This document shows, piece after piece, positions 8,812-31,353 of a DNA stretch of 64,000 nucleotides. Below the pieces are notes generated by a model. It had not been told where the DNA came from, did not search any database, and saw nothing but the letters and a program-made list of their open reading frames with translations. Where the stretch lies: contig OZ038527.1 in the NCBI GenBank assembly GCA_964036665.1, forward strand, positions 15,345,835 to 15,409,834. The letters are read 5' to 3'. The position numbers and the translations under genes were made by a program. This stretch comes from Gordius sp. MW1 (Eukaryota; Nematomorpha; Gordioida; Gordea; Gordiidae). Within the stretch, counting starts at the first letter, position 1, and each line of letters begins with the position of its first letter.

Positions 8812-9892
8812 ATTGCTATGCAATTTATGAGCTCGTTTTTTATATGGGCTCGTTTTTGATTTTACGTTGTCCGTTGTCCGTTACCCTTCAAGTTATTGGC
8901 GCCAGCTTTGTGACCTGGAGGTGTCGGGTTCAAGCCAGGGAGGGGACGAATTTTTTTAAATTAAATTAATATTTTGTTCTTGTTAATACCATTGATAATA
9001 TGACTTTTTGACCTTCCGCTGGCTACTGACCGATGAAATATATTGATTTTCTAAACATAAAACACAACTTTTAATTGCTATGCAATTTATGGTATTATTT
9101 TATTATCTATATAATTAACATAAAAAACTTACTATTTTAAAAGCAGCATGGTGTGACGGGTTATAGCGCAGGCTTTTAAACAGATGCCTTTACTGATGTG
9201 GGTTCGAATCCCGGAGAGGGCAAAATTTTTATTTTTTTTTTAAATTAAATTAATATATTGTTCCTGTTAATAACATTGATGATATGACTTTTTGGCCGTC
9301 CGCTGGCTACTGACCAATAAAAAAAATGACCAATGGCCAAATAAATCGAACTTTTTTTTTCCGTTTTGAAATGGTTAACATTGATAATTACCCTATGCCC
9401 TCCCCTACAAGGGCCTATGCCTCTATTGATATGGGTCCCTGTGCCCCTACAAAAGGCCTATGCCTCTACTGATGTGGGTTCGAATCCCGGAGAGGGCAAA
9501 ATTTTTATTTTTTTTAAATTAAATTAATATTTTGTTCTTGTTAATACCATTGATAATATGACTTTTTGATCGTCCGCAGGCTACTGACCAATGGAAAAAA
9601 TGACCATTAACCAAATAAAAGGAAATTTTCTTTTCGTTTTTAAATTGGTTAACATTGATAATTACCCTATGCCCTCCCCTACAAGGGCCTATAACTAATT
9701 ATCTAAATATTTTGCATTTAATACCCCCCTATAGGCATTCTCGCCCCTTCCCACCTTTCTCGCCCATAAATTGCATAGCAAATATGCTACGTTTATACGG
9801 AGTATAGAAGAGTTCCCCCTTCCCTTGCCCCCTTCCCTTCCCCTACTCCCATTCCCCTCTTCCCCTTCCCACGAGGGCTGAAGGCCCGAGTT
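8812..9892 (+). mobile_element. Helentron-like non-autonomous element, copy A
   Basis: The 5' end is TTGCTATGCAATTTATGAGC followed by GTTGTCCGTTGTCCGTTA. Near the 3' end the same motif returns inverted (CATAAATTGCATAGCAA, about 9765-9781). It is followed by a purine/pyrimidine-biased tract and a terminal hairpin GGGCTGAAGGCCC (9875-9887), ending ...CGAG next to TT. This arrangement (5' motif, inverted copy near the 3' end, terminal hairpin, internal tandem repeats) is the known plan of Helentron-associated non-autonomous elements. Inside are two ~280-bp units, each with a tRNA-like T-arm (GGTTCGAATCC at 9201 and 9478) and a GGCCAATGGTCAT/ATTGGTCAG hairpin block. Copies B and C share both ends in the opposite orientation. 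Confidence 0.65.
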
Positions 9893-10207
9893 AATTGTTA
9901 ATTTTTGATAATCAAACTCTTCATTCAACTCGGAGAAAAAACCTGTTGATTTCAATTAGATGTTTGTATTTATATTGCCTCGTAGCTTTAAATAAATTAA
10001 TTGTGCTCTGGTGCTTTGTCCAACTGCGTAACTTTTGTTAAAAATCTCAGATGTTTAAGATTTCAGACCTAAACGCACCAGTTCAAAATTTCAGGCGTTC
10101 ATATCGGAAATAGTGTGAGATTTTTAAAATGTCTTAAATAATCGAAAAATGCCTCGTGATATCTTACATATACTCAAATGTAGAGACCTCTATCGGCGGC
10201 CAAATCA

Positions 10208-10326
10208 TCACCCGGTGGTTTTGGGTGGCGCTCGTGCCTGAAAAATTAAAGGTAAAAAATCCCAGGCCGCGCCATAAATACAAAATCAAGCGTCTCCTTT
10301 ATTTCAAATGGATAAAAATGATATTC
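10208..10326 (-). CDS. Possible last two exons of an unrecognised gene
   Basis: Two short frames fit as exons: 10282-10326 (EYHFYPFEIKETLDF) and 10208-10237 (ARAPPKTTG then stop), separated by a 44-base intron with GT and TTTTTCAG ends, in phase. The intron size matches those of the firm genes. Twenty-four residues are too few to name a family, and upstream exons were not found. This is a weak prediction. Confidence 0.25.
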
Positions 10327-11391
10327 CTGAGAAAATAATTCTATTTTTTATATTGAAAAATATCTCAAGCGCTTAGTAAGAGATTCTTTGTGTCTTATAT
10401 TTGGTAAGACAATTGATTAATCGTTTTGTCCACCTTAAGAATGTTATAACCTAAACCTCCTGGGTAGTTTATTCGCGCCAAATTTTTGTATACAATTTTT
10501 TTATTTGAATACTCATTATTGTATCTTGATACGTAGCTCTTATTTATTTTCATAAATTCGAGGCTGCGTCAATCCGGGCAAGGAATTAGTTTTTCTTATT
10601 AAATTATTATACCATTCTGCAGGTCTTTAATCAGGATAGGGGAGCCAAATAATGAGAGACTAATGTATTATAAAAAGACAGTAAAATTGTTGGCAAATTA
10701 ATTTACTTTATTATAAATAATTGAATTTTTGTGACATGACTTGCAAAATTTTTTATAATATTAATTTTTTTGTGCAACAAAGGTTTATTTAATTGTGTGT
10801 GATACATGTTAAAATATATTAAATTAATGAGTTGGCATCGAGCCATGGATTTAGAGTATATTCAATTTTACAATTTTCATGGATTAATCAAGTGTAATTT
10901 TTTTGAAGGCTGTAATAACACATCTTAATTGTCTTAGTATTTAAATACATAAAAAATACTAATTTTTCAAAATAACATTACTATGACGGTCCCAAGTCCG
11001 TGTCCAAAAACTGGAGGGTTGGCGTCAGGTCGAAAATCGGCTACTAAAACCAACTTCAAAATTATGATAGTTTAAACAAAGCTTTACAACAGAAAGCCTG
11101 AGCGTCCTTCACAAATGACGCGCACTGCATACCCCTTAGGTGCAATGTGAAAAATGCATTAAGGTTAATGCCCGACTCACAAAAGGGCGGTTAAGGAAAT
11201 TATTTGTGGGTAGAACGAATGAGCATCGCGGTCGCACAAATGCTAAAAAGAAGAAAGGTACACAGCGCCTGCCTACAAAAGACGAGGTAGATTTGAACCA
11301 AATCTCGAAAGTTAAGAGAAGGATACAAACTATTCTACAGTGGGTAGCCAGATCGTAGAAACGGGGTCGGTATCGTTCTAAGGAAATCGTT

Positions 11392-13950
11392 CAAGGTAGA
11401 GAAATCCACGGGTGACCCAAAACCCTCCGGACCCGATATCCGGTCGGGTTTTGCTTCAAAATTTGGGTCGGGTCAAATCGGGTTGAAAATTTTAAAATGC
11501 TTTCGGGTCGGGTTCGGGATAAAAATTTTAATATGCTTTTGGGTCGAGTCGGGTTGGATTTAAAGTGTCGGATAAAAATGAGTCCGACATTGCAAAATAC
11601 ACGGGACCTTTCTTTTAAATTAATGCTATTATGTATAATATTTTTTAAACAACATCGAGATGTATAATTGAAGATCGATTAAATACCTTTTGTTTCTTTA
11701 AATCTGATTGTTATATTTGGACGCAAATTTTACTCATGAAAGCTAAATATATCAACAAAATAATATTTTTAAATAATATTTAAATAGTGTGAAGTGGTAG
11801 TTCATTAACTTAAACTACATAAATAAATATCCATAAAACAAATAAAAGTAAGTTTAAATTTATTAAATAATTCATTTGCAAAACTATATAATTTAATGTG
11901 ACGCGATATTGTAGATGCTATCATATATTATATCTCTATATTAAATCATTCAAATATATTTAGTAATAAAAATCTGTGGTATCAATTAGTTTCATAAATC
12001 ACTTTAATTTGTCGATTAAATTAACACCGTCGTAGGCCAGGATTAAAATTAGAGGGGGGGCATTTTTTAAAATTTTAGGCATAATTTCATAAAATATATA
12101 AGATTTTTTGTACAGTCGAAATTGTATAAGTGAGAATCGGATAATTCATAATATCTATAAATAATAAATACGCGATGTTTTGAACACATATCTAAAATTT
12201 ACGCTTAATCTATTTATAAGTGAGAATTGGTTAAATGCTTGAAATCGGAAAAGTGGTAGGATTATAAATTTTTAATTAATTTCTACATTAAATTTAGGTG
12301 TTTGAGTGTGAATGAAAAAAACTAACTTACTATGATATGTTAAAAGTCATTGAAGAGGCCAAACATACCAGCAAATCAACTTTAGCCAATAATTACAGAG
12401 TGGGACTAGGGATAATTTATACTATATGCAAAAATGCAGCTGAATTGCAGACATTGCTTTTAATAACATAACTCTAAATAAAAAGAGACAAAGGAAAATT
12501 ATTCTTGTTGATATAAATCAAAATTGTTTAATTCAGCACAATACCTTAAAACCGAACAGGTTTTGCTAAAATGGTATGCAGAAATTAGTCCAAAAAGATG
12601 TGCAATTCGTGCTTTGCTTCTTACCAAGATAAAATATTTTTCAAGGCATTTTAATAAAGGTAAATCTGTTAACATTAGCCAATTCTCACTTATACAATTT
12701 CGACTGTATTATAAAAATAATAGACTTTACTTTTTAAAATTTTTTTCTTTATTGGACTCTTTGTTTTTGATTAAAGCATCTTGGAATGCCGTTTCTTGCA
12801 AAACTATAAAAAATTGTTTCAAAAAACCGCTTTAACGTTAATCTTAGTCTGCAAAATGACAGCAGGATTGATGCTGCAGGTTGTTTGAATGGATTCTTTA
12901 GTTAGCACCTCATTTTCTACAACCAATGATTCTCTTAACTATGATTATAATTGTATTAGCTGTTTTGGTGATTATACTGATGCTGATATTATAGAGGAAA
13001 TTAGGTAATTTTACATTTTAATTTTTTTATAACATTTGGAAAGTCATGATGATCCTGCCTTTGATAAGTATAATGAAGTTGAATTAGTTGAAGAAATACC
13101 CACCAAAGAAGAATCACAGATGGGATTTTTCACTTTAGCCAAATAAGCCCATCAAATATTAAAAGATGAATATCACACAATTTTTTACCAAAAATTAATA
13201 AATTAAATAAATATTTATGTATTTTTTATATGATTTTAATAAATTCGACTTAATAATTTATGTCTAGTTTCTGGTATAATTTTTTTTTATTAAACTTCTT
13301 AAAAAGATCAGAAGGCTTGTTACAATAATAAACTTTTAGTAATTTTGGTTGTAAACACTACTTATTTTAATTTCGAATTTTTAATGTATGTTGTATGCAA
13401 TGGATACAAGTGTCAGCTGATTCTGTTTAACAACATAAAGTACATAAAGTTGAGTTTGCTCAAAATTTTAAATTTCTTCAAAGCCTATATATATGTATAA
13501 TATATTAAAAAAAGTAATTTTTGGAACCTCAACCTTGATAAATAGCATGTGTTGAAAAGATTCATAAATTAAATGAATAATTGAATTAATCGTATAAGTG
13601 CTTAAAATCGCTTAAATGAAATTTTTTAAAATTTAAGGCCCAGCGATTCTCACTTCAGCTATTTCGACTGTATATAGAGGGGGGCTGCCACCCGTCTTTG
13701 TCACCCCCTGGCTGCGCCCATTCACACCGCATTTTTTCTTACTCTCGCGTTGTACACCAAAATTTAAAACGCCTTCGGGACGGATTCGGTTAAAAATTCA
13801 AAGGCTTTCGGGCTGGGTCCGGTTCGGGTTAAAAATTTTAAAATGCTTTTGGGTCGGGTCAGGTTTGGGTTAAAAATTTTTAATTGCTTTCGGGTCGGGT
13901 ACGGGTTGGAAATTTTTAAATAATTTTGGGTCGGGTCAAGTTCCGACAGG
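11392..13950. mobile_element. hAT-like element with GGGTCGGGTT minisatellite ends
   Basis: It begins TAGAGAAATCCACGGG directly after GTTCAAGG of the interrupted LINE. Both end regions (11400-11580 and 13770-13945) are arrays of ~40-base units built on GGGTCGGGTT and AAAATTTTAAA. The right end is eroded: the LINE resumes at AGGTTAATGTGACGG, so most of the expected duplicated GTTCAAGG is missing. The TAGAG start and end-array design resemble hAT elements such as those at 31350 and 25518. It carries a GGCGTAGCC-type MITE (about 12032-13722) and within that a Tigger relic. Confidence 0.55.
12113..13670 (+). mobile_element. Tigger/pogo-like DNA transposon, transposase remnants
   Basis: The ends are CAGTCGAAATTG...AGTGAGAATCG and the mirrored CGATTCTCACTT...ATTTCGACTG, flanked by TA on each side (12111-12112, 13671-13672). 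The plus strand retains pieces of a pogo-type transposase: a CENP-B-like N-terminal helix-turn-helix (MLKVIEEAKHTSKSTLANNY, about 12338-12440), the second DNA-binding helix bundle (YLKTEQVLLKWYAEIS, about 12540-12590) and an acidic C-terminal tail (YNEVELVEEIPTKEE, about 13070-13115). The DDE catalytic core between them is not recognisable. An extra, almost perfect inverted copy of the terminal repeat lies inside at about 12681-12710, next to TA. Two overlapping or nested copies are therefore possible. Confidence 0.65.
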
Positions 13951-14224
13951 TTAATGTGACGGAGATGCAGATCAAAGGGGCCTCCTACCTTTATGAGCGA
14001 GTAAGCTTCCTTTGGGTGTATGGAATCAGAGAAAGACATTTTCTTCGATTGATTAGAAAAAATACAAGGAATAGCGCCCACGTAGTGAAAGAGAGCCTTG
14101 GGTAGAAATCATGGAGGCGGGGCATGGTCGGAAGAACAAAGAAGGGGAAAAACTTCTAAAGTATCCCAAGCATACGACAAGGCGATCACACCTATTTTCA
14201 AAAGCGCAAAGATCATATTGTGAC

Positions 14225-14674
14225 CATAGACTAGATAGACTGCTCATCAACGCACAAAATGTGTACCCCTTTTTCCACCATTTTAAAAGGCACATTGTAA
14301 AGTGGTGATCATATAGAAATTCGTAATTTTCGCAAATTAAATAATCTTAAAAAGGTGAATAAAAAATATTGAATTGGGCAAATGGCAAAAACAGCATTTT
14401 AAAATAAATATCATTTACACAATACATAAAATTGTAAAAAATGCGATTAAAGTTTGTTTAATTATAAAGCGCCATCAATATTAATTGCTATTTTTTTAAT
14501 ATTAATTTATTGAAGTTCGTTTTAATTTATAAACTAGTGACGAAGGTAAATTGACTGTTATAGGGCAAAATTACATGGTTAAAATACACCAGTTGCCCTC
14601 TTCAAAATGGAGGAAAATTTGACACACAATTAACCCTATGCAACATATTGCATGAGCAGTCTATCTAGTCTATG
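14225..14674. mobile_element. MITE of the CATAGACTA family inside the LINE
   Basis: The ends are CATAGACTAGATAGACTG and CAGTCTATCTAGTCTATG. Perfect 8-bp duplications ATTGTGAC flank it (14217-14224 and 14675-14682). It splits the endonuclease/linker part of the RTE copy. No coding capacity. Confidence 0.85.
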
Positions 14675-15492
14675 ATTGTGACTTATAGAAGTGGGAAGCA
14701 TTGTAGTTTACTATTTGCTCATATGGCGAAAGGACTTATGCAGCATTAAAGTTTGCAAATTATACCGGGAGTAGAAATCGCCAGGTAACATCGTCCACTT
14801 GTGATAGATCTTGAAAGAAAATATTTTTCTGAAAGAAGTATTTAAGAACGTCAAATTTTATAAACGCTAACGGATACGTCAACTAACGATAAATATCATC
14901 AAAAAGATACCTCACTCTTTGGTGCAAGGAAGTTTCAGAGGGAAGTTGATAACGATTTGAGACGCCAAATAAGGACATAAATGAAACAGCGATGTTCGAG
15001 AACAGACCATAGGAAGCAAAGCTATGAATAGGGAACTTTGATGATGGGATTAAAGATTTCATCGAAAGAAAGAGAGATTCACATAGAGGGTGGCATAAAT
15101 CAAAAAAGTCGGAGGATTATCAAGAGTATAGGGAGGCAAAGGGAGCGGCGAAAAACGGCGTTGCAATTGAGAAGAATGCCGCGTGCACCGAGATAACAAG
15201 CAAACTGGATCATAAAGGGGGCGATAAGCTTATGTACAAATTGGACAAGATAAGGGAGAAGGAAATCGCGATGTCGGAGTCTTTAAAATAGTCAAAAACA
15301 AGAAAGGTCAGACCTTTTTCAAGCCGAAGGAAGTGATGGAAAGGATATTTCAAGGAACTTATAAATATTGTAAATGACAAAGATTCCCTTACCGATATTG
15401 AGCCAAATATAAGTGTTGGGCTCTTCAGGAAGATGAAGTTAGAACACGAATGAACAAGATGCAAATAAAAGGCTAATGTCCCAGATGGAATA

Positions 15493-18182
15493 GGGGAGAC
15501 AGAGGCAAATCGTAGCCCGGGGTCACTATTATTTAAAATTTAAACCATTTATGTATTTTTTAATAAGGTATAAGATATTTTGGTTAGAAAAAATAAAATT
15601 TAAAGTTTTTATAGAAGAAATACGACTTTTCGGGGCTATTAGTAGCCTTGACAAACTTTTGTATTTTGGACATAAAATTTTTTGGATGTATATTTTGGAC
15701 TAATTTAAGTTTTATCTTATAAAGGGTTTTATTTTATATAAAATCCGTAAAATAATTAAATTTTTATTCGCAGTATAACTGGTTAAATTATTAATTCTTT
15801 ATAAAAAAACTCGGGCCTTCGGCCCTCGTGGGAAGGGGGAGAAGGGAAGGGAAGGGAAGAGGGGAAGGGAAGGGAAGGGGAGACGACTCATCTGTACTTC
15901 GTATAAATGTATCATATTTGCTATGCAATTTATGGGCGAGAAAGGTGGGAAGGGGCGAGAGTGCCTATAGGGGGGTATTAAATGCCTAATGATTAATTAA
16001 TTATTTATACAAATTTTCTATTATAGGCAAAATGTAATATAGGCAAAATGTAATATAGGCAAGGGTTAGGGTTAGATTTAGTGTTTGCATCTAGTTGCGT
16101 ATTACATTAGTTTTTATGGCCTTTAGTGATTATGGGTCTAACAAACATTATATTATAAAACAACACAATGTTAAGAATTTGCAGAATTGTTGGGAGAAAT
16201 TTTTTGTTGAATTTGAACAATTTTTAATTAAAAAAATCAAAAATTTGGCCAATGGTCACTTTTTCTCTATTGGTCAGTACCAACAGATACTCTATAAGTC
16301 AATGATAGCCAAAAAAACGGAAAAAAAATTTTGATGCTCACTTTGGCCAATGGTCATTTTTTCCATTGGTCAGCAGCCAGCACACGGTAAAAGTGGATAT
16401 AAATTCATAAGAGTAAAAAAAACGAAAAAAAAATTTTCGAATCACATTTTGGCCAATGGTCATTTTTTTTTATTGGTCAGCAGCCAGGACACGGTAAAAG
16501 TGGATATAAATTCATAATAGTAAAAAAAAAACGAAAAAAAAGTTTTCGAATCACATTTTGGCCAATGGTCATTTTATTCCATTGGTCAGCAGCCAGCGGA
16601 CGGCCAAAAAGTCATAACAGCAATGGTAGGAACAGGAACAATCATAATAGTCAAAAAAAACGAAAAAAATAATTTCGATTCACATTTTGGCCAATGGTCA
16701 TTTTTTCCATCCGTCAGGAGCCAGGGGACGGCCAAAAAGTCATAATAGCAATGGTAGTAACAGGAACAATCATAATAGTCAAAAAAAAAACGAAAAAATA
16801 AACTCGGATTCACATTTTGGCCAATGGTCATTTTTTTCATTGGTCAGCCAACGGACGGCCAAAAAGTCTTATTATCAATGATAGTAACAAGAACAATCAT
16901 AAGAGTCAAAAAAACTCCGGGATTCTAACCCAAAAACTAGTTAAATTGCATTGCAATTAAAAGTAAACAACTTTTATTTATGTTTATTATATAACATTGG
17001 TCAGCAGCCAGCGGACGGCCAAAAAGTCATAATAGCAATGGTAGAAACAGGAACAATCATAATAGTCAAAAAAAACGAAAAAAATAATTTCGATTCACAT
17101 TTTGGCCAATGGTCATTTTTTCATTGGTCAGCAGCCAGCGGACGGCCAAAAATTCTTATTATCAATGATAGTAACAAGAACAATCATAAGAGTCAAAAAA
17201 ACTCCGGGATTCTAACCCCAAAACTAGTTAAATTGCATAGCAATTAAAAAGTAAACAACTTTTATTTATGTTTATTATATAACTAGTTAAATTAGTTAAA
17301 TTGCATAGCATTAAAAGTAAACAACTTTTATTTATGTTTATTATATAATAGATAATTTAACAAATCTTATATATAACACACCGAGGGAGATAGAGATGAG
17401 GGGTGGGGGACCTCTTATGCATTAATTTAAAAAATAACACAGCGAGGGAGATAGAGATGAGGGGTGGGGCACCTCTTTCTCATGCATTAATTTAAAAAAG
17501 CGATAACCTAATATACCCAATGCAAATAGATAGGGAGGGTAACGGACAACGGACAACGGACGGACGGACACCAAAAAACGAGCCCATAAATTGCATAGCA
17601 ATTAATAGGGGTCGAGGTTAGTCGGAGATAGGCTAGTTCTAGTTTTTTATTGTGTCTTACAAATGACAAGGTTTAAAAACAAAAATTTTGCTTATAATCC
17701 AACTTTGTGTAATTTAGAATAGAAATAGACTATGATTATACTTTAGAAAACGACTAAAAGTTGTTTTTCCATTGCAAAATCTGTCTTTTAAGTGTCCTTC
17801 AGTCAGATTGTCATCTTGACCCTTTTTTATTTGTATTATATAGAATACAATCATATTGCAGTTGCATTTTATTTGTTTTTATAATGTAACAATCTTTTTA
17901 TTGATTTGAGTTAGTCTACACTATTAAGAAGTGAAAACGTCATGAATCTTTCCCCTGAACAGGGCAACTAGCCATGGGCACTTTTAAAATTTTATGAATT
18001 TTTGATTTTTTTAAACTCAATTTATCAAAAAACTATGAGCACCTTTTTCTCAATTTTTTCCCGATAGTGGAAATAGACTATAAAAATGTATTCCAAATTC
18101 CAATAAAGAAATTATAAAAAACATTTTTAGTTTTTTTTAAACGTGATTTTATTTTTTTGGCCATTTGGTCCATGGTCTCCCC
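15493..18182. mobile_element. TA-flanked TIR element carrying a Helentron-like insert
   Basis: It begins GGGGAGACAGAGGCAAATCG and ends GGTCCATGGTCTCCCC, so the terminal repeat is GGGGAGAC plus a partly matching extension. TA dinucleotides flank it at 15491-15492 and 18183-18184. Removing element and one TA restores the LINE reading GGA-ATA-CCT-ATG (G-I-P-M), matching the intact LINE copy at 41 kb. The element's own sequence is 15493-15810 and 17607-18182, without a transposase frame; the middle is Helentron-like copy B. TA duplication and ends fit a Tc1/mariner-type non-autonomous element. Confidence 0.75.
15811..17606 (-). mobile_element. Helentron-like non-autonomous element, copy B
   Basis: Read on the minus strand, the 5' end is TTGCTATGCAATTTATGGGC followed by the GTCCGTTGTCCGTT run (17530-17605). 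The inverted subterminal copy is at about 15919-15940. The terminal hairpin GGGCCGAAGGCCC is at about 15813-15825, with GAG then a T run outside. The interior (16240-17200) holds about nine units of 95-130 bases, each containing TTGGCCAATGGTCAT and CCATTGGTCAG, i.e. a self-complementary CCAATG...CATTGG hairpin, next to CGGACGGCCAAAAAG. Three repeats of ACTAGTTAAATTGCAT with CAACTTTTATTTATG follow (about 16935-17345). Confidence 0.65.
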
Positions 18183-18529: not shown

Positions 18530-20263
18530 GTATGTATGTATGTATGTATGTATGTATGTATGTATGTATGTATGTATGTATGTATGTATGTATGTATGTA
18601 TGTATGTATGTATGTATGTATGTATGTATGTATGTATGTATGTATGTATGTATGTATGTATGTATGTATGTATGTATGTATGTATGTATGTATGTATGTA
18701 TGTATGTATGTATGTATGTATGTATGTATGTATGTATGTATGTATGTATGTATGTATGTATGTATGTATGTATGTATGTATGTATGTATGTATGTATGTA
18801 TGTATGTATGTATGTATGTATGTATGTATGTATGTATGTATGTATGTATGTATGTATGTATGTATGTATGTATGTATGTATGTATGTATGTATGTATGTA
18901 TGTATGTATGTATGTATGTATGTATGTATGTATGTATGTATGTATGTATGTATGTATGTATGTATGTATGTATGTATGTATGTATGTATGTATGTATGTA
19001 TGTATGTATGTATGTATGTATGTATGTATGTATGTATGTATGTATGTATGTATGTATGTATGTATGTATGTATGTATGTATGTATGTATGTATGTATGTA
19101 TGTATGTATGTATGTATGTATGTATGTATGTATGTATGTATGTATGTATGTATGTATGTATGTATGTATGTATGTATGTATGTATGTATGTATGTATGTA
19201 TGTATGTATGTATGTATGTATGTATGTATGTATGTATGTATGTATGTATGTATGTATGTATGTATGTATGTATGTATGTATGTATGTATGTATGTATGTA
19301 TGTATGTATGTATGTATGTATGTATGTATGTATGTATGTATGTATGTATGTATGTATGTATGTATGTATGTATGTATGTATGTATGTATGTATGTATGTA
19401 TGTATGTATGTATGTATGTATGTATGTATGTATGTATGTATGTATGTATGTATGTATGTATGTATGTATGTATGTATGTATGTATGTATGTATGTATGTA
19501 TGTATGTATGTATGTATGTATGTATGTATGTATGTATGTATGTATGTATGTATGTATGTATGTATGTATGTATGTATGTATGTATGTATGTATGTATGTA
19601 TGTATGTATGTATGTATGTATGTATGTATGTATGTATGTATGTATGTATGTATGTATGTATGTATGTATGTATGTATGTATGTATGTATGTATGTATGTA
19701 TGTATGTATGTATGTATGTATGTATGTATGTATGTATGTATGTATGTATGTATGTATGTATGTATGTATGTATGTATGTATGTATGTATGTATGTATGTA
19801 TGTATGTATGTATGTATGTATGTATGTATGTATGTATGTATGTATGTATGTATGTATGTATGTATGTATGTATGTATGTATGTATGTATGTATGTATGTA
19901 TGTATGTATGTATGTATGTATGTATGTATGTATGTATGTATGAATGTATGTATGTATGTATGTATGTATGTATGTATGTATGTATGTATGTATGTATGTA
20001 TGTATGTATGTATGTATGTATGTATGTATGTATGTATGTATGTATGTATGTATGTATGTATGTATGTATGTATGTATGTATGTATGTATGTATGTATGTA
20101 TGTATGTATGTATGTATGTATGTATGTATGTATGTATGTATGTATGTATGTATGTATGTATGTATGTATGTATGTATGTATGTATGTATGTATGTATGTA
20201 TGTATGTATGTATGTATGTATGTATGTATGTATGTATGTATGTATGTATGTATGTATGTATGT
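18530..20263 (+). repeat. 1.73 kb (GTAT)n microsatellite
   Basis: About 433 uninterrupted copies of a 4-base unit, broken only by a single T-to-A change at 19943. Because 4 and 3 share no factor, all three forward frames stay open and encode a repeating M-Y-V-C peptide; this is not evidence of a gene. The tract starts abruptly after CTGTAAACA and ends at GTGGATAAGAGCTGAATTC. Confidence 0.97.
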
Positions 20264-21640: not shown

Positions 21641-22730
21641 CTATTGTTATTGTTGGGGTGATAGAAAAAAGGAAAAACAGCTGATTAAATTATCGACTTG
21701 AATAAAGTATATGACATGGTCCCTCGCGTTTAAATATGGTAGTGCTTGAGAAAAAAATATTCCTGTTTTATATATACGGCTTATCAAAAAAATTTTTGAA
21801 GTGTCAAATTCGTGTGTTAAGGCGAGTGGAGCCACGGAACCTTTTCGGGTTGATGCTGGATTACACCAAAGATCTGCTCAAGGTCCCTATGTAGTTAATA
21901 TAATTATGGACAGAGAGACATTCAAAAGCCATCGCCATGAAGAATGCTATATGCCGATGATATAGTAGTATCGAAGAGAGAAAGAAAAAAGTGAAGAAGC
22001 CAAGGTGGTCAAGGCGCTTAGCTGGATATGGTTTAAAGGTCCACGATCGAAAAAGGTTTATATCAAGATGAACGTTGCAGGCACCCCATCTCTAGATGAC
22101 TCTCTAAAGTACCCAAAAGTCGACAGGTTTACATACCTCGGCTCGATGTTACATCAAGAGGGAGTTTAGGCAATAGAAGTCAATGACCGGATTCAAAAAG
22201 ACTGGCCTAAATGGCGAAGAATATCCGGTGTAATGTGCGACAAGAAAATGCCAATATGGTTGAAGAGCAAAGTCTACAAATCCGTAGTAAGACCGGTGTT
22301 ACTCTATGGAAGTGAAACAGTGGCATTTAACACCACGGAGAAAAGCTAGTTCAAGCCGCGGAGATGAGAATGATACGGTGGAGCTTGGGGTATACTAAGC
22401 TTGACCATATGACGAATAGCTTTCTCATGACAAAAATGGGTAATAAACCTATGGCGGACATTATTAACGAAAATCGGCTAGGTGATATGGGCTTGGGCAT
22501 ATTCTAAGAAGAGAGTCAAATGATGTAAATCGAAAAGTACTGGACATGGAGTTACCGGGGAGGAGAGAAAGGGGACGACCTCGTGTCATGTGGAAAGGGC
22601 TGGTCGACAAGTCATGAAATTAAAGAAGATTAAAGACATCGACTTACCGTATTAAGATGGAAAAAACTCATCAAAGCAAACCCCAAGACTGTGGAACCAA
22701 ATATTTAATAAAGAAGAAGAGGTGTGACTT

Positions 22731-22890
22731 GTAGAATTCCATATGTCTAAAATTAAACATTTTTATTAATTTTATGATTATAAATTGTTTGAAACATTTT
22801 AACTCTATATGGAGTTAATAAGCATATTTAGTTCGAATGATTTATAGGAATGAAAATTTTGTTTTTTACAATTTTATTTTAAACTATATA
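22731..22890. other. Short spacer between LINE end and LTR
   Basis: AT-rich unique-looking sequence that ends in ATATA, the left target duplication of the gypsy element. Nothing else seen. Confidence 0.5.
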
Positions 22891-23067
22891 TGTAGTGTCA
22901 GTTATTAGTTATTTAGTTACTTGAATTTATCCTTTGTTATTTGTAACATAATTACCTATTTTAAGTTTATGAATTTATCGTCTGCGTATAATTTTATCGT
23001 CTGCTTATAATTAATTACTCGCTGTTATTGAAATAAATTCGTTTGTTTGGTTTGCTACTTCACTACA
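22891..23067 (+). repeat. 5' LTR of the gypsy element
   Basis: 177 bases with TGTAGTG...CACTACA inverted ends. It shares with the 3' LTR the blocks TTATTTGTAACATAATTACC, TTTTATCGTCTGCTTATAAT and TTTGGTTTGCTACTTC. Confidence 0.88.
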
Positions 23068-23136
23068 TTTGGCGACGAGGAAAAACTTCTAAATCCAAAA
23101 ATATTTCATAATGAATGCTGCTAGCCTTTGTTAATC

Positions 23137-26100
23137 AGAATGACCAAGAAGAAGCCCGATATAGATTCAAAATTCGAATCAAATTCCGGAAATTCTCTTG
23201 ATAGGGTTAGAGATATTACACCATATGATTCAACTAAAAATATTAATGATTATTTATCAATTGGAATTAATCTTTCGTCTTAGAAATATTAACGGAGATT
23301 TGAGAAAAATTGTGTTATTAGCTTATATAGGGACCACCCACCTGAGTAAAATAAGAAGTTAGATTTATCCAAAGGAGTTGATAGTGTAACTTACGAGGAG
23401 GTTAAGGAATCTTTACGGATATATTGTGATTAAAATTCAATTTATTATTACAGGGAAATGTTATTTCGATCAGAGAGAGTTAATGAAACTAAAATTGATT
23501 ATTCAAAGCTAAAAAATATTATCAATCGCTTCCAATATTAATTACCCACTGATGAAATTTTAAGATATTTTTAACCTAGGAGTAAAATTAAGATTAAATG
23601 TTGAATTAAGAACTAAATACCCCATGGGCAATATAACATTTGACGAAACAATAAATTTGGCTCTTGCTCTTTCATCAATTGAAGGCGAAACCTCTCGCGA
23701 TTTGGACATAAATAAATTACATCGGGATAAAAAACCAACTAGGAATTTCACTAATAACTAAAATACTTTTCCAACAAGAAAATAGTATGTTAAAGGTGTG
23801 GTAAACCAAACCACCTGGCTCGCTGCTGGTCAAATTTGCCGTCAAGAACTATATCTGACTTGAAATACGATGGAGCGGTAACAAAAGCTGAGATCGACGT
23901 TTTAATCAATCAGAGACAGTTCGCTTTTCAATTCGATACTGGTGCAGCCTGCACAGTCATTGATGAACCGACTTGGCTTAACATCGGGAAACCATCATTA
24001 TCGCCAAGTTCAAATGTTTACGGTTATGGCAAAACAAATATCCAAACTTTGGGGAAGTGCAGTGCAAGGGTAGAAGTATCACATGTCATAGATACGCATG
24101 TTGTAAAAGGGAAAGGAAATTTGATCTTCGGTATCCTTCACATCATAAAATTTAATTTGTCACTCCCATCAATCATCCATCAATCATTAAATTAAACTTT
24201 ATTTCCGATGAGAAAAATTTTTTAGCTGAAGAAGATATTTTTAAACAATTTCCAACGGTTTTTAGTCAGAAATCGGGTAAAGTAAAAGATCTTAAAATGT
24301 TATTGAGGTAGAAAATACAGCACGTCTGATAAGTTTTACCGCAAGACGCGTACCATTTCCGCTACGTCACGCAGTCGAAACAGATTTGAAACGTTTAGAA
24401 GGTGAAGGGGTTATTAGAAAGATCGACCCGATAACAACTCCGATAAATTGGGCGACGCCTACGGTAAATATTAGGAAGAAATCTGGTGACGTCCGCATAT
24501 GTGGGGATTTCTGATTGTCTTTAAACAAATTCCTATCAAAAGATAACGATCTTCTGCCAACGTTCAAAGATGTTGCAAGTAAAATAGCAGGTGGTAAATT
24601 ATTCTCTATCAATGATTTAAGAGATGCTTTCCTTCAATTACTAATTTCTGAGGAGAGTTCTAAATTGTTAAACATAGCTACTCATATTGGGTATTTTCAA
24701 TATTTACGGTTACCTTTTGGGTTAACTACGGCGCCTATGATATTTCATCGTTATATAAAAAACTTGCTCAAAGGCTTAAAAGGCTTAAGCGTTTTTATAA
24801 ACGATGTCATAATAAGCGGGAAAAACAACGAGGAACATAATAAAAATCTAAAAGAAACATTAAACTTAATCAAAAACGCAGGATTAACGACAGCCCTTAA
24901 TAAACTACAATTGTTCAAAAAATCAGTAAAATTTTTGGGTCATACTATAGATGAAAATGGCATTCATCCTAATGAAGACAAAGTTAAGGCAATTAAAAAT
25001 TTTAAGTATCAATTAATCGTATAGAATTGAGATCATTCTTAGGTTTAGTTAATTATCTTGCAAGTTATATTAACAATTACAATCCAAAAGTTCAATTTTA
25101 TATAAATTAACATCTACAAGAGTAAAATGGAATTGGAGCATGACAGAAACACAGGCCTTTTAACGAAATAAAAAACTTAATTTCAACGGATAAAACAATA
25201 ATCCCTTATCTAAATAATTTACCCATTATAATTTTATGCGAAGCATTAGACAAAGATTTAGGAGCTGTAATTGCACATTAATTCATTAGTGGTCAAGAAA
25301 GATTGATAGCTTTTGCCTCTCGTACTCTAAGTCCAGCAGAACGGAATTATTCTGTAATTGACCGCGAAGCCGCTGCTATAATGTTCGCCATTTCACGAAT
25401 ACATTTTTGGGAAGAAATTTACATTAGTCACAGACCATCGTCCTTCAGAAAGAATTTTTGGTTCTTATAGAGATTTAAGTAAAGTCACTAATAATCGATT
25501 AGTTAGATGGGCAGCAGTAGTGATGCGGAAAAACCGAGAAAAATCTCGGTCTCGTCTCGTCTCGTCTCGAAAAACCGAGACGAGACGAGACGAGAATTTG
25601 AAAAATGGAGTCGAGATCGAGACGAGAATTTTGATGTCGAGACGAGACGATACGAGATTTTCTCGGCGAGATCTCGACTTTTTATTGATCGTTAGATTTT
25701 AGTGAATTATTGTGTATTTTAATTTACATGATTTAGTATTAAGTGTAAACCAATATGTATGGAATATATTTGATATTAAAATAATTCCTAAGTGTAGTAA
25801 ATATTATATATTTTTGCAAAAAAATTAAAATTTGGCAGTTATTTACCTAAGTATGGTTGATTTTTGTCATACATTTAAATACGTACTCTTTAATTTAAAG
25901 TTTAAAACCTTATGTTCTTAATCCTATAATAATGCTGCTTTTATTGTTGTTTTTACAACGTTTTAATTTGTGCAACTAGTTATCAATTCTGTAAATAATA
26001 AGAACATCATTAAATGTCACTTGCACTTTGTGGTTTATAGCGCTAGAGTAAACATGCAATAAATACTATGGGCTATAATTGAAGATGGTTATATCAATGG

Positions 26101-27720
26101 ACTTAAACGTTTGCCTTAAACATGTTGAGGTCTACTTTGAAGCTTTAGCAAGGGTTAATAAGGGTCTCAATTTACTCAATTATGCAACTAAGTCAACTAT
26201 AAGCGAACTTATAATTTTCGAAGTCCATTTATAGTTGACAACACAGTGAATTTGATACAAATGTTATAATTTGCTATAACAATAAAATTAAATTTTCTAT
26301 TTTTTAAATTTATTTATAGTTTTTTTAGTCTGCACTTTTTATAGAAAATGTTATCTTTATGAGTTAATTTATATCTTAATATTGTCAATGAGATGTCGTG
26401 TCCCGCTAAATTTTAAAAAAGTTTGTATATTAAAGTTTTTCCAAAAATATAAAAGTTTGCCATTTGGATTTTTGAACACTTGTTTATATTTTTAATAAAA
26501 CAGGAGAAATTTTTATTCCGTATATTAAAGTCGAGACGAGACGAGAATTCTCGTCGAGACGAGACGAGACCGAGATTTCTCTAGACCGAGACGAGACGAG
26601 ATCGAGATTTTCATAATCGCTCCCGAGACGAGACGAGATTTTGTTTTCGAGACCGAGACGAGACGAGATCGAAACACTAGGCAGCAGAGCTCTTACACTA
26701 TGATTTTGATATTAAATATTTATCTGGATCACGAATAAATGCGCGGATGCTTTATTACGTATAATTCCTATTTCTAATTATTCTGACCCGAAATCGGATC
26801 ACCAAGATAAATTAATTAAATTAAACTTAATAGACGACTTATCCATTAATCGTAAAACTATGATAAATGAAACTTTGAAAGATGATGTACTAAAAGAAGT
26901 TATAATATTTCAAAATAATTGGCCATGTCTCTAATGAAAAAGTTAAAAAATATTTCGATTTGAAAAATTATATATCGTCCGAAGATATAATATTATATTT
27001 CAATGATAGACTCATTATACCCTCGTTTGAAATCTGAGATTTTAAAAATACTACATAATGGGCACCCAGGGATTGGAGCCATGAAATCTCTAGGAAGATA
27101 TTACGTATTTTGGACCAACTTGGACAATTACATAGAACAATACGTAAATGATTGTAATAATTGCCAAGAAGGTAGACCATAAGCGAAAGAAGTACCAATT
27201 TCTTCCTGGAATATTCCCAATAAGCCTTGGGAAAGGATCCATACAAACAATTATTGGTTGGTATGTATTGATGCTCCTACAAAATGGCCGGAGGTTATGG
27301 TTATTAGGCAAATCAGCAGTGCGAACATAATTAAAAATTTACGAGTTTTGTTTTCCAGATATGGACTTCCACGATACATAGTTAGCAACAATGGACCACA
27401 ATTTACGTCGGACTAATTTCAAACTTTCTGCAAAGCAAACGACATTCGACATTTTCGTGGCGCATGGTTTGGCGGAGAGATACATTAGGACAATTAAAAG
27501 CAAATTTTTTGCGGGGAGGAGACAGGAGTTAGATGATCATGAAAATTTGTTGCAAGTTTTATTTAATATGCGTACGACGGTGAATACCATTACTGGTATT
27601 AGTACGGGAGAAGGCATGTTTAACCGAAGACTCCATTCATCTCTCGACCAACCAAAATGGACGCACAATGATAGAATAGGTGATGCCTTATGGAAACAAA
27701 AAGACACATATCTACGTACA
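23137..27720 (+). pseudogene. Gypsy gag-pol remnant
   Basis: Domains in order: a capsid-like region (23137-23760), a zinc knuckle with a stop inside (23788-23829, C-x2-CGKPNHLARC), an aspartic protease (FDTGAACTVID, about 23929-23961), reverse transcriptase (about 24400-25010; LPFGLTTAP, LFKKSVKFLGHT), RNase H (about 25210-25415), the tether up to W-A-A (25516), the hAT insert, an integrase zinc-binding HHCC region (about 27040-27180), and an integrase core (GLPRYIV about 27365; AERYIRTIKSKF about 27471). The RT catalytic box reads F-I-N-D instead of F-x-D-D, and the integrase Asp before NGPQF is Asn. Multiple frameshifts confirm it cannot make an active polyprotein. Confidence 0.85.
25518..26679 (+). 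mobile_element. (CGAGA)n-ended hAT-like element, copy 1
   Basis: It begins TAGTGATGCGGAAAAACC and ends CGAAACACTA. Duplicated GGCAGCAG flanks it (25510-25517, 26680-26687). The first ~170 and last ~150 bases consist of CGAGACGAGA-type pentamer arrays and their complements, so each end can fold on itself. The 850-base middle is AT-rich without a gene. Short frames through the ends (DAEKPRKIS, SRLVS) are translations of the repeat. It interrupts the gypsy element between RNase H and integrase. Confidence 0.88.
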
Positions 27721-27779
27721 AAAGTGTATCCGTGCCACCTGTCAGATACACCGAGGGTTCCGCTTAAAGAAGGGAGAAG

Positions 27780-27948
27780 TGTTGTGACAGTTATTAGTTA
27801 TTTGAATATACGCTTCGTTATTTGTAACATAATTACCTATTTTAAATATGTGAATTTATCGTTTGCGTATGATTTTATCGTCTGCTTATAATTAATTACT
27901 GTCGGTTATTAAAATAAATTCGTTTTTTTGGTTTGCTACTTCACTACA
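27780..27948 (+). repeat. 3' LTR of the gypsy element
   Basis: 169 bases, TGTTGTGACAGTTATTAG...CACTACA, preceded by the polypurine tract and followed by the ATATA duplication. Confidence 0.88.
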
Positions 27949-27953
27949 ATATA

Positions 27954-28441
27954 CACACTATAGCGGCTTTTAGATACAATAGCCGGCAAATTAAGCCTTT
28001 TAATGCTATAGTTGTAATCAAAGATGGGTCTACGTTATGAGGGTGATGTAAACAATATTTCCCCTAATTTTAATAATCTTTGTGAATTAATGGAATCTAT
28101 ATCTTCATTGACTCTGGCTTATAGGCAAGCGTGTAGGGCTGAACTTTGTAAGGTTTATCGATACTTCATCTTTTAGAATATAAGTTTCGCGTGATGGCGA
28201 TTTATTACGATCCCATGAATTTAGGTCGGATCAAGCGGTAGGCATACTGGCAAAGCTAATGAAACAATCTTGAACACTCGTAATACCAACTTTATCACTT
28301 TGCGCTTGATAGAGGGTGAAACTTGCATAATCGTCATTTAGTTCAAATATATCATTATTTGTAGTTAGGTCGCTCTCGCCATCATTTCTTGCCTCATGAT
28401 CGTTATTTCGCTTCCACCTTCCACTTCAACTGTATAACTTT
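27954..28441. other. Gap; one minus-strand coding-like block
   Basis: No firm gene. On the minus strand, about 28210-28400, an open block encodes LTTNNDIFELNDDYASFTL and SVQDCFISFASMPTA before a stop. It could be a further exon of the frame at 28442-28978, but no GT/AG pair joins them in phase. Confidence 0.3.
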
Positions 28442-28978
28442 CTAAATTTTTGTTACATCTTTTTTTTCTATTTTCTGGGACTCTATTTCCATGGCGTTAT
28501 CGTGTTCTCGGACATCTTCCCATTTCAAATATAATGGGTATTTTTTGCCGCATTTATCTAAATCAGCCATTAGATCTGGCTTTGGATCTTGCCATCTGTC
28601 ATTTGTTATAATTATCTCGTCCTTTAACATGAAATTTCCATGAATGGCATTATTCTCATTGTTTTTACACATTCCACAATATTTACTAGAATTACTCGTT
28701 CCAGGCTGTTCTTTACTCGTCAATTTTCTTTTGTTCGTTAAATTTATGTCAAGTAATAATCTTCTTATCTTATTTAAACCTCCATTCTTACTACTTTTTC
28801 CAGCAACTTTTTCTTGGCTATCACTGCTAATACCGCAAAGACTTTTTTCTTTATTCAAATCTTTTTTCAGGTAAAAAATTATTTCTTCATGCTTTTTAGC
28901 TCTAGCTCTTGCGTATGAGGACCAATCTTCAACATTTTTTACATTTTTGCATTTCAAGAATTTACAAAAGTCAAACAT
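28442..28978 (-). CDS. Unrecognised 178-residue open frame
   Basis: The frame runs from ATG at 28978 (MFDFCKFLKCKNVKN) to TAG at 28442. It is Lys-rich, with a possible amphipathic helix near residues 20-50 (ARARAKKHEEIIFYLKKD) and a C-x2-C pair (YCGMCKN, about residue 115). The sequence after it is distinctive (DRWQDPKPD, KYPLYLKWEDVREHD), unlike translated repeats. Base composition is slightly less A/T-rich than the flanks. I do not recognise the family. It may be one exon of a longer gene continuing toward 28210, or a gene relic next to the gypsy 3' LTR. Confidence 0.4.
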   Translation of the reverse strand: MFDFCKFLKCKNVKNVEDWSSYARARAKKHEEIIFYLKKDLNKEKSLCGISSDSQEKVAGKSSKNGGLNKIRRLLLDINLTNKRKLTSKEQPGTSNSSKYCGMCKNNENNAIHGNFMLKDEIIITNDRWQDPKPDLMADLDKCGKKYPLYLKWEDVREHDNAMEIESQKIEKKDVTKI

Positions 28979-29276
28979 CACAAGCAAATTGTTTTACAAT
29001 GAACTTAATAACAATTGAATAACTTGTACTTGTATAGAATTATGACGTTTAACTAATATACTTAATCATTATTGTTAGTATAATTAAGCTACATAAATTT
29101 AATGGTTGATGGTTCCGCCTATTTTCCGTTGTTTTATTAAACTTTGCAACTTTATTATTTAATATCCCTTTTCTAAATAAATACTGTAGGTATTGATGGT
29201 ATCCCTATACCGCATGAGACAGGGAAAAATTATCATTCCTTAATTTAATAAACATAATTAATTACTACTGTTCTTC

Positions 29277-29457
29277 ATGGGCGTAGCCAGCATTGAGATT
29301 AGAGGAGGGCAATAATGATTTAGGGAGAGGCAAAATCATCTTTTTTAAATTTTAGCTATAATTTTAATAAATTTTAACACATTTTTAGATTTAGATAGGG
29401 GCAGCCACTTCTCCTTACCCCCACCCTCTTCCCCCCCCCCTTAGCTACGCCCATGCT
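29277..29457. mobile_element. MITE with CATGGGCGTAGC ends
   Basis: The ends are CATGGGCGTAGC and GCTACGCCCATG, perfect 12-base inverted repeats. G-rich and C-rich tracts lie just inside, as in other members of this family (1406, 2789, 13722). No target duplication was readable. Confidence 0.65.
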
Positions 29458-29516
29458 GAAGGCGTTAGAAGCCTCGCCAGTTTTAAGGTGGTGAGTCATA
29501 GAGTAGTAGATAGTAA

Positions 29517-31353
29517 CTCAGGCGTTTGGTCCTCGTGGGAAGGGGGGAAGGGAAGGGGGGAGGGAGGTGCAGGAGGGAAGGAGGAACGAAACTCACTCCG
29601 TATAAACGTAGCATAGTTGCTATGCAATTTATGGGTGAGAAAGGTGGGAAGTGGCGAGAATATCTATAGGGGGGTATAAGATGCAAAATGATTAGTTAAT
29701 TATTTATACAAATTTTTAAAAAGTTAAATTTTTGTAAAACCAGCTATTATTAAGGAATAGGTTTCTTTCATTCATTCTTATTTATCAACTTCTAAATTAA
29801 TAAAATGACCCTTGGAAAAGCCAATACCAAAAGGTACAACTTTCAATTTAGAGTTTTATTGATACTGTATAAATTTAAGCAATTTGGTGTAGGCGACCCA
29901 TAATTTGAATTATGATTATAGACTCTATTCAAATCATGCGCATATGTATAGTATAAACAAGATATTAAAAAAACGAAAAAAATTTCCAATCAGACTTCCA
30001 TCACTTTGGCCAGTGGTCATTTTTTCTAATGGTTAGCTGACAGCCAAATAACTAGCCTATAATTATAATCTGAAAAAAATCGATTTTAGTCTCACTTTGG
30101 CCAGTGGTGATTTTTTCCATAAGTCAGTAACCAGCAGACTGCCAAATACTTGCCAATAATAATAAACTAGAGAAAAAATTTGATCTTAATCTCACTTTGG
30201 CCACTGGTCATTTTTTAATTGGTCAGTAGCCGGCAAACGGCCAAATAGCCTATTTTTAAAATATAGAAAAAAAAATTTGCTACACTTTGGCCAATGGTCA
30301 TTTTTTTATTGGTCAGTAGTAGCCAGGACACCGTCAAAATGAATATAAATACATAAGAGATGAAAAAAAATTTCTATTTATACTTTGGCCAATGGTCATT
30401 ATTTTCATTGGTCAGTAGCCAGGACACGGTCAAAAAGGATATAAATACATAAGAGACGAAAAAAAACGAGAAAAAAATTTCGATTTATACTTTGGCCAAT
30501 GGTCATTTTTTTCATTGGTCAGTAGCCAGGACCTGGTCAAAAAGTCATATTATCAATGATATTAACAATAACAATATATCAATTTTAAAAAAAAAATAAA
30601 AAAAAATTTGCCCTCTCCGGGATTCGAACCAGCAATTAAGAAATGGCCCTCACCGGGATTCGAACCCACATCAGTAGAGGCATAGTCTTTTGTAGGAGGG
30701 GGGGGGGCACAAGGACCCATATCAGTAGAGGCATAGGCCCTTCGAGGGCATAGGGTAATTATTATCAATGTTAACCTAACATACCAATTCAATAACGAAA
30801 AAAAAATTTCGAATTACAATTTGGCTAAGGGTCATTTTTTCATTGTTCAGTAGCCAGGCACGGTCAAAAAGTCATATTATCAATGGTATTAACAAGAACA
30901 ATATATTAATTTAATTTTAAAAAAAAAAAATTTTGCCCTCTCCGGGTATCGAACCAGCAATTAAGAATTTGCCCTCGCCGGGATTCAAACCCACATCAGT
31001 AGAGGCATATGCTTTTGTAGGGGGGGGGCACAGGGGCCCAAATCAGTAGAGGCATAGGCCCTTCTAGGGGAGGGAATAGGGTAATTATCAATGTTAACCT
31101 AATATACCAATTCAAAAATGAAAAAAAAGATTTCGAATCACAATTTGGCCAATGGTCATTTTTTTTCATTGGTCAGTAACCAGGACACGGTCAAAAAGTC
31201 ATATTATCATTGGTATTAACAAGAACAATATATTAATTTAAAAAAAATTTTTGCCCTCTCCGGGTATCGAACCAGCAATTCAGAAAGTTGGACGGACGGA
31301 CAACGGACAACGTACGGACGGACAACAAAAGGCGAGCCCATAAATTGCATAGC
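29517..31353 (-). mobile_element. Helentron-like non-autonomous element, copy C
   Basis: On the minus strand the 5' end is GTTGCTATGCAATTTATGGG followed by GTCCGTTGTCCGTCCGTCC (31280-31353). The inverted subterminal copy is at about 29618-29640, preceded outward by the same AAGGG-rich tract and a degraded terminal hairpin (29519-29540). The interior has CCAATGGTCAT/ATTGGTCAG hairpin units of ~95 bases (29990-30560). Two to three ~310-base higher-order units (30600-31260) follow, each containing inverted tRNA-like T-arms (CTCTCCGGGATTCGAACC near 30613; CTCACCGGGATTCGAACCC near 30649). Confidence 0.65.

What the first reader, a model, noticed from the sequence alone, without database searches (positions are those of the whole stretch)
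8812..31353. A Helentron-like family with tRNA-like arms and tandem hairpins (three copies)
Copies A (8812-9892), B (15811-17606) and C (29517-31353) share a 5' TTGCTATGCAATTTATGGG terminus, an inverted copy of it near the 3' end, a GGGCC...GGCCC-type terminal hairpin and TT at the 3' junction. This is the published plan of Helentron-associated elements, but the interior is unusual: repeated tRNA-like T-arm/acceptor segments and many CCAATG...CATTGG hairpins. I know of no description of this combination.
Basis: partly seen in the sequence, partly recalled or inferred. Interest (0 to 1): 0.75.

Follow-up and report, generated by a model that had tools for sequence, protein, structure and literature searches.

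The report
Abundant rolling-circle transposon family (HINE)
Three copies of a very abundant non-coding jumping-DNA family lie in this window; it has the hallmarks of Helentron-dependent rolling-circle elements, jumps into runs of T without duplicating the target, and shares its genome with an apparently intact Helentron enzyme, so it is mostly a good new example of a known kind with an odd interior.

Summary
The copies belong to a family with thousands of copies: the 19-base end (up to 2 mismatches) occurs 9405+9493 times, against 0 for the reversed control. The anatomy matches published HINEs (non-autonomous Helentrons): palindromic 5' end, inverted subterminal copy, 3' hairpin, GTCC microsatellite, central tandem repeats, insertion in T runs. 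Copy B sits inside another repeat; all 40 scored matches span its joined flanks, and six of eight empty sites read have TA-TTTTT-AT. No target duplication appears in 30 paired ends. The same genome encodes a Helentron: one open frame with DUF6570, Rep, PIF1 helicase and AP-type endonuclease, related to a protein of the mite in which HINEs were defined. The 5' motif found beside it is the family's end minus two bases. A partner with identical ends was not found, and the Helentron's 3' end was not located. The 'tRNA-like' parts are only a T-arm-like stretch: no tRNA model matches, and 31 of 54 have lost the key C. The hairpins vary almost only on one side. Verdict: a new HINE family, with internal 5'-end copies as its most unusual trait.

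The parts
8809..9891 (+). copy A, complete element TTAATTGC...GGCCCGAGT
8809..8831 (+). copy A 5' end with palindromic subTIR (AATTGC-TAT-GCAATT)
8866..8886 (+). copy A GTCC-type microsatellite near the 5' end
   Evidence: sequence, by eye
9071..9093 (+). second, internal 5'-end copy inside A (TTAATTGCTATGCAATTTATGGT)
9184..9692 (+). copy A central tandem repeat, period 274, 1.9 units
9201..9221 (+). T-arm-like 21-mer GGTTCGAATCCCGGAGAGGGC
9477..9497 (+). T-arm-like 21-mer, second unit
9763..9781 (-). copy A 3' subTIR (inverted copy of the 5' end)
9875..9887 (+). copy A 3' terminal hairpin GGGCTGAAGGCCC, followed by GAG|TT
15809..17605 (-). copy B, complete element, inserted in another abundant repeat
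15813..15825 (-). copy B 3' terminal hairpin GGGCCGAAGGCCC
15918..15936 (+). copy B 3' subTIR
16311..17283 (-). copy B central tandem repeats (periods 109, 128, 287) with CCAATGG...CCATTGG hairpins
17542..17570 (-). copy B GTCC microsatellite
   Evidence: sequence, by eye
17583..17605 (-). copy B 5' end, TTAATTGCTATGCAATTTATGGG
29516..31355 (-). copy C, element with degenerate 3' hairpin and no TTAA at its 5' end
29617..29635 (+). copy C 3' subTIR
30035..31247 (-). copy C central tandem repeats (periods 100, 107, 327) with hairpins and T-arm-like pieces
31337..31355 (-). copy C 5' end 19-mer

Best explanation
The three copies are members of a high-copy HINE family: non-autonomous rolling-circle transposons moved in trans by a Helentron (a Rep/helicase with a fused endonuclease). 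Proposed working, inferred from the known superfamily: the Helentron Rep nicks at the palindromic 5' end (TT|AATTGCTATGCAATT), the helicase peels off one strand, the 3' hairpin (GGGCCGAAGGCCC-GAG) marks the end of the transferred strand, and the strand is joined into a run of T without cutting out the donor and without duplicating the target. Extra copies of the 5' palindrome inside the central repeats can act as further starts and give shorter elements. Shown here: ends, target, empty sites, absence of target duplication, presence of an open Helentron frame with a related 5' motif beside it. Inferred: the nicking, strand transfer, trans mobilisation, and use of internal starts as a general route.
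For: Ends: 19-mer 9405+9493 (up to 2 mismatches), control 0; 3' end CACGAGGGCCGAAGGCCC 1608+1642 exact, control 0; 5' end with GGGCTC 2987+2942 exact, control 0 (the patterns leave out sites with G at one far flank base). Flanks: T at -4 in 97 of 100 and A or T at -3 in 93 of 100 listed 5' ends; T in 60, 56 and 54 of 60 at the three bases after GAG, 60 of the 100 listed 3' ends being used. No target duplication in 30 unambiguous pairs, best of 125 length and offset choices z 1.4. Empty sites: copy B, 40 of 40 scored matches (of 1063 first-look candidates) span the joined flanks at 83-87%; 8 read, 6 of 8 with CGACCC(C/T)TA-TTTTT-AT against filled CGACCCCTA-TT|AATTGC...CCCGAG|TTTTTTT-ATAA; L065 against L039, T6 empty, TT and T7 filled. 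Helentron: open frames of 1767 and 1580 aa, Pfam DUF6570, Helitron_like_N, PIF1, Exo_endo_phos, 46% and 38% identical over the two parts to a protein of Galendromus (Metaseiulus) occidentalis, only 27% over 190 aa to a canonical Helitron of the same genome. The motif TTAATTGATGCAATTTATGGG beside it equals the family's TTAATTGCTATGCAATTTATGGG minus CT; 8 of its 11 exact copies lie within 5 kb of listed Helentron coding pieces on the same strand, at 4 loci. HINE definition read as passages in PMC4067079 and PMC7492417.
Against: No Helentron with exactly this family's two ends was found. The 3' end of the Helentron was not located in the 6 kb read beyond its frame on C8, and its 5' motif shows no inverted partner there at up to 1 mismatch. 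The motif lies in tandem arrays, 1.2-4.6 kb upstream of the frames on C6 and C8, and one of the eight copies lies on the downstream side of a coding piece, so its status as the true terminus is inferred. Three of its 11 exact copies are not near a listed Helentron piece. A 10.6 kb stretch bounded by family ends showed no Rep or helicase frame by eye in the 9.9 kb read (L068). The Rep loci of the first search that I looked at belong to canonical-type groups, though I read the 3' end of only one group.
Confidence: 0.92

Rival explanations
1. A non-autonomous canonical Helitron: TC...CTRR ends, insertion between A and T, moved by the abundant canonical Helitrons of this genome.
For: Canonical-type Helitron Reps are abundant here (150 scored of 714 candidates).
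Against: Ends are TTAATTGC...GAGT, not TC...CTRR; target is a T run; a canonical Helitron group of this genome ends in hairpin-CTAG|T, unlike the family. That subTIRs are foreign to canonical Helitrons is from PMC4067079 passages and recall.
Confidence: 0.03
2. A MITE-like element moved by a cut-and-paste DDE transposase.
For: Inverted copies of one sequence near both ends; DINE-1 elements were once filed as MITEs (PMC2374699, abstract beginning in a listing only).
Against: Asymmetric ends (one inverted copy lies about 100-110 bp inside the 3' end), no target duplication in 30 pairs and none at two empty-site sets. TTAA before TTGC is element sequence, absent from the 3' side and from the empty sites.
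Confidence: 0.02
3. A tRNA-derived SINE array: the T-arm and its neighbours are a pol III promoter and the family spreads by retrotransposition.
For: B-box consensus GGTTCGAATCC (recalled) exact in 13 of 54 held T-arm stretches, a possible acceptor complement, and a T run just downstream.
Against: No tRNA model match; the key C is lost in 31 of 54; no target duplication; ends are DNA-transposon-like.
Confidence: 0.01

Closest known systems
HINEs of Metaseiulus occidentalis and DINE-1-like elements (Thomas et al. 2014, PMC4067079, passages read)
   Same: Palindromic subTIRs close to the 5' end and short of the 3' end, 3' palindrome, insertion in T-rich sequence, Ts of variable number at both ends, no target modification, copy number above that of the Helentron.
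   Different: 3' subTIR about 100-110 bp from the 3' end against 38-60 bp in the mite; long, complex central repeats; a pyrimidine-rich tract between 3' subTIR and hairpin.
Cg_HINE elements of the Pacific oyster (PMC7492417, passages read)
   Same: Left module with subTIR and GTCC/GTCY microsatellite, central array of satellite-like tandem repeats, right module with subTIR and palindrome.
   Different: Here the repeats hold 5'-end palindromes, hairpins and a T-arm-like stretch; no such content was seen in the passages read, and the term tRNA does not occur in that paper's main text.
Autonomous Helentrons (Rep, helicase, AP endonuclease; RPA)
   Same: The genome's own frame has this domain order, and RPA-like exons (by eye) lie downstream.
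   Different: The family itself has no coding capacity; the 5' motif beside the Helentron differs by two bases and the Helentron's 3' end is unknown.

Membership tests
HINE (non-autonomous Helentron) | Inverted subterminal repeats, one next to the 5' end and one near the 3' end | tested here: met
   palindromic core AATTGC-TAT-GCAATT folds as a hairpin (fourth sequence)
[quoted passage not shown]
   GGGCCGAAGGCCC, 3250 exact 3' ends; intact in A and B, degenerate in C
HINE (non-autonomous Helentron) | Insertion in T-rich sequence, Ts at both junctions, no target-site modification shown by empty sites | tested here: met
HINE (non-autonomous Helentron) | No coding capacity | tested here: met
   none of the 12 open frames of 150 aa or more in the window lies in A, B or C
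HINE (non-autonomous Helentron) | Microsatellite and central tandem repeats (common, not obligatory) | tested here: met
   GTCC runs by eye in all three copies; central repeats by TRF
HINE (non-autonomous Helentron) | Termini shared with an autonomous Helentron of the same genome | tested here: inconclusive
   Related 5' motif differing by CT, 8 of 11 exact copies beside Helentron pieces; identical-ended partner not found, 3' end not located
HINE (non-autonomous Helentron) | Rolling-circle movement | not testable with these tools
   needs an experiment; only inferred
Autonomous Helentron (C8 and C6 frames) | Rep and Pif1 helicase fused to an AP-type endonuclease | tested here: met
   whole on C8, endonuclease part broken off on C6
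Canonical Helitron | TC 5' end, CTRR 3' end, insertion between A and T | tested here: not met
MITE of a DDE superfamily | Terminal inverted repeats with target-site duplication | tested here: not met
tRNA gene or tRNA-derived SINE | tRNA fold or model match, A and B boxes | tested here: not met
   only a B-box-like T-arm stretch, intact in 13 of 54 held stretches

The most novel reading that the evidence does not exclude
The central repeats are not passive satellite but an array of spare 5' replication origins: the B subfamily carries the palindromic 5' end again inside its repeats (AATTGCTATGCAATTTAACTAGTTTT, 2462+2570 exact, control 0; spacings of about 121 and 289), and these internal starts are used, so one element sheds a nested set of shorter elements and grows its own array. 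In the loci held, 2 of 45 such motifs stand as element starts next to other sequence (L057:1527, right after another element's 3' end, and L053:2925).
Probability: 0.3. Interest if true: 0.5.

Novelty: new member of a known kind. Interest (0 to 1): 0.35.

Why it matters
The family has about 5900 exact 5' ends of one form, and the 30 pairs measured have a median length of about 1.75 kb, so it may make up around 5% of a 212 Mb genome (my rough estimate). It shares that genome with an open Helentron frame, and some copies are 97.6% identical, so it could be a workable system for asking how Helentrons choose their 5' end, why they insert in T runs, and how central satellite arrays grow. These are open points for Helentrons to my knowledge. 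It does not change the known classification.

Tried and rejected
Partner among PF14214 hits: 30 loci of about 3.5 kb, none with the family end within 2 mismatches; 14 lower-scoring hits resemble the same groups; a Helitron array with 12.46 kb spacing also lacks the ends in the 16 kb read. Only 150 of 714 candidates were scored, and the Helentron frames are not among the rows printed. L039, picked because a 5' end lies 4.4 kb before a Rep: the end is an unrelated fragment of about 75 bp. L068, picked because 5' and 3' ends lie 10.6 kb apart: no Rep or helicase frame by eye. A second such pair (C1:1682468-1693089) was not read.

Partner ends: upstream stretches of four more Helentron copies gave no family 5' end at a credible place; one holds an AATTGCTAACAATT palindrome (L091), one a HINE fragment (L093), one a piece of the hairpin unit (L092), one nothing (L094).

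tRNA: a full tRNA was tested for and not found. RNA folding of three T-arm pieces gave z -1.75, 1.11 and -0.17. Hairpins: a single unit folds well (z -4.1). A first parse of 290 units (62 perfect) was spoilt by units read out of register; a stricter parse gives 176 units, 59 with seven perfect pairs, and at most 3 cells of 1232 with a change on both sides that keeps a pair, against 61 and 31 one-sided G-to-A changes at the two pairs next to the loop. The strict parse anchors on the right arm and so favours left-arm changes. No sign of selection for pairing either way.

TTAA as a piggyBac-type target duplication: rejected by the empty sites.

Host: not named by the tools. Where a row names an organism (120 of 196 rows listed) it is an arthropod, which is a hint only.
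Full report
What was checked. The three copies were read. The 19-base end TTGCTATGCAATTTATGGG occurs seven times in the window at up to 3 mismatches, against 0.05 expected from shuffles. The window lies in an unnamed 211.8 Mb genome of 12 contigs, where the same end occurs 9405+9493 times at up to 2 mismatches and the reversed control 0 times. The family is therefore real and very abundant. Exact 3' ends number 1608+1642 and exact 5' ends of the form ...GGGCTC 2987+2942, controls 0 (both patterns leave out sites with G at one far flank base).

Anatomy. From its 5' side an element reads: TTAATTGCTATGCAATTTATGGGCTCG (palindromic core AATTGC-TAT-GCAATT), a GTCC microsatellite, central tandem repeats (period 274 in A; 109, 128 and 287 in B; 100, 107 and 327 in C), the inverted subterminal copy CGCCCATAAATTGCATAGCAA, a pyrimidine-rich tract, and the hairpin GGGCCGAAGGCCC-GAG. 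Limits in the window: A 8809-9891 (+), B 15809-17605 (-), C 29516-31355 (-). C has a broken hairpin and lacks TTAA. Of 30 unambiguous 5'/3' pairs on contig C1 the lengths run from 381 to 2850 bp, median about 1755. Among 27 elements or 1.4 kb element parts, 204 pairs gave a megablast alignment of 400 bp or more, with median identity 93.2% and maximum 97.6%; window B reaches 97.2%, while A and C gave none of that length, so the three window copies belong to different subfamilies.

Target and empty sites. Among the 100 listed 5' ends the flank shows T at -4 in 97, A or T at -3 in 93, and T at -2 and -1 in 97 and 96; among 60 of the 100 listed 3' ends the bases after GAG are T in 60, 56 and 54 of 60. 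A test of 30 pairs over 125 length and offset choices against shuffled partners found no duplication (best z 1.4). Six junctions were tested in one genome search; all 40 scored rows (of 1063 first-look candidates) belong to copy B, which sits inside another abundant repeat, and all span the joined flanks at 83-87% identity. The other five junctions gave no row among those scored, so they are untested rather than negative. Eight empty sites were read: six have TA-TTTTT-AT, one TATGTTTATG, one a shortened form. The filled site has TT before AATTGC and seven Ts after GAG, that is nine Ts against five. A second case, L065 inside a Helitron gene whose empty counterpart is in L039, has nine against six. 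So the element enters a T run, brings a few Ts of its own and duplicates nothing else. This is what PMC4067079 reports for HINEs (T-rich target, at least two Ts at each end, no target modification, Ts variable in number; passages).

The enzyme. The PF14214 search scored 150 of 714 candidates. The 30 loci cut out lack the family end, and 14 weaker ones resemble the same groups. One of these groups ends in a hairpin and CTAG, the canonical Helitron end (the others' ends were not read). The frame on C8 reads Rep, helicase and endonuclease without a stop; on C6 the endonuclease part is cut short by other sequence. Pfam gives DUF6570, Helitron_like_N, PIF1 and Exo_endo_phos. Relatives of its Rep part include a protein of Galendromus (Metaseiulus) occidentalis, the mite in which HINEs were defined; the two parts of the frame match it at 46% and 38%, while a canonical Helitron of the same genome matches only at 27% over 190 residues. 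The genome shows 54 coding segments of this kind at E up to 1e-10, 41 of 252 candidates being scored. RPA-like exons lie downstream of the C8 copy (by eye).

Link between enzyme and family. Upstream of the C6 and C8 frames stands TTAATTGATGCAATTTATGGG, the family's end without CT. This motif has 11 exact copies in the genome and 5 more with one mismatch. Eight of the 11 lie within 5 kb of a listed Helentron segment and on its strand, at four loci (C6:2.71, C8:4.09, C8:19.83 and C3:2.29 Mb), one of the eight on the downstream side; three do not (C5:15.18, C6:5.53, C8:29.74 Mb). At C6 and C8 the motif stands in arrays together with pieces of the first coding stretch, so its place as the terminus is inferred. 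No 3' partner of the motif was found in the 6 kb read beyond the C8 frame. The family's own partner, with identical ends, is thus not pinned down.

The interior. The T-arm-like 21-mer occurs 560+550 times exactly, control 0. No tool sees a tRNA. Of 54 stretches in held loci (one SINE-like match in L038 set aside, overlapping loci counted once), 23 keep the C of the T loop and 31 have lost it; 13 keep the full B-box consensus, and 13 keep both the C and AGAGGGC. It is best read as a relic, perhaps of the 3' half of a tRNA gene, carried along by the tandem repeats; an imperfect palindrome of other origin is equally possible. The CCAATGG...CCATTGG hairpin is stable as a single strand (z -4.1), but only 59 of 176 strictly parsed units pair perfectly and the changes are almost all one-sided: no sign of selection for pairing. 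More unusual is that the repeats of the B subfamily carry the 5' palindrome again (AATTGCTATGCAATTTAACTAGTTTT, 2462+2570 exact, control 0). In held loci 43 of 45 such motifs have element sequence upstream and 2 stand as starts next to other sequence, one right after another element's 3' end. Copy A also has a second 5' end at 9071.

How it most likely works. By analogy with Helentrons (inference): the Rep of a Helentron nicks at the 5' palindrome, the helicase unwinds, the 3' hairpin ends the transfer, and the strand enters a T run. Internal 5' palindromes may give shorter elements and feed the arrays. Shown: ends, target, empty sites, no duplication, an open Helentron frame with a related 5' motif beside it. 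Not shown: nicking, strand transfer, mobilisation in trans.

Known or new. The plan is that of HINEs (PMC4067079, PMC7492417; passages read). Tandem repeats inside HINEs are published. Searches of the held library for Helentron with tRNA (7 papers), with tandem repeats and hairpin (9 of 11 listed), Helitron with tRNA-like and related terms (20 of 276 listed), Helitron with pol III terms (15 of 48 listed) and HINE or DINE-1 terms (26 of 28 listed) showed no title or abstract beginning on a HINE with a tRNA piece; the passages of PMC6934838 and PMC10294476 read do not describe one. The library is partial. I file it as a new member of a known kind.

Noticed in passing
window 18530-20263: A nearly perfect (GTAT)n array of 433 copies, 1.7 kb, 99% matches; Rfam mir-297 hits there are this simple repeat.
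   Followed up: partly
window 10969-11022 (+): Weak match to type-P1 twister ribozyme, 29.7 bits against a gathering score of 67.2, E 0.009.
   Followed up: no
window 24515-25024, 27382-27891, 62334-62858 and 40165-41637: Open frames that look like retrotransposon reverse transcriptase and integrase pieces, by eye, not searched.
   Followed up: no
window flanks of copy B, 15509-15808 and 17604-17905: Copy B splits another abundant repeat of unknown kind; 40 of 40 scored relatives are uninterrupted at this point.
   Followed up: partly
G000 C3:19107893-19136352 (L021, L067, L020, L018): Rep hits of a canonical-type Helitron at three places spaced 12.46 kb, 99.8% identical over 3.5 kb between the two units read together; looks like a head-to-tail array.
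   Followed up: partly
L087, L089, L091, L092 (upstream of Helentron frames): Tandem copies of the Helentron 5' region with its first coding stretch (MSTDTPEDVEARLARRRE...), as if replication restarted many times from one side.
   Followed up: partly
L092 about 600-650: A piece resembling the family's hairpin unit (CTACTGACCAATGGAAAAAAATGACCAT) upstream of a Helentron copy on C2.
   Followed up: no
L090, minus strand, about 100-950: Exons of an RPA70-like single-strand binding protein downstream of the C8 Helentron frame, read by eye.
   Followed up: no
L090 minus strand 1905 and 2193; L086: Other HINE-like ends with the same or nearly the same AATTGCTATGCAATTTATG core but different following bases (CCTTAACG, TAATATA).
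   Followed up: no
L038 minus strand around 138: A separate SINE-like stretch with better A- and B-box resemblance than the HINE T-arm, by eye.
   Followed up: no
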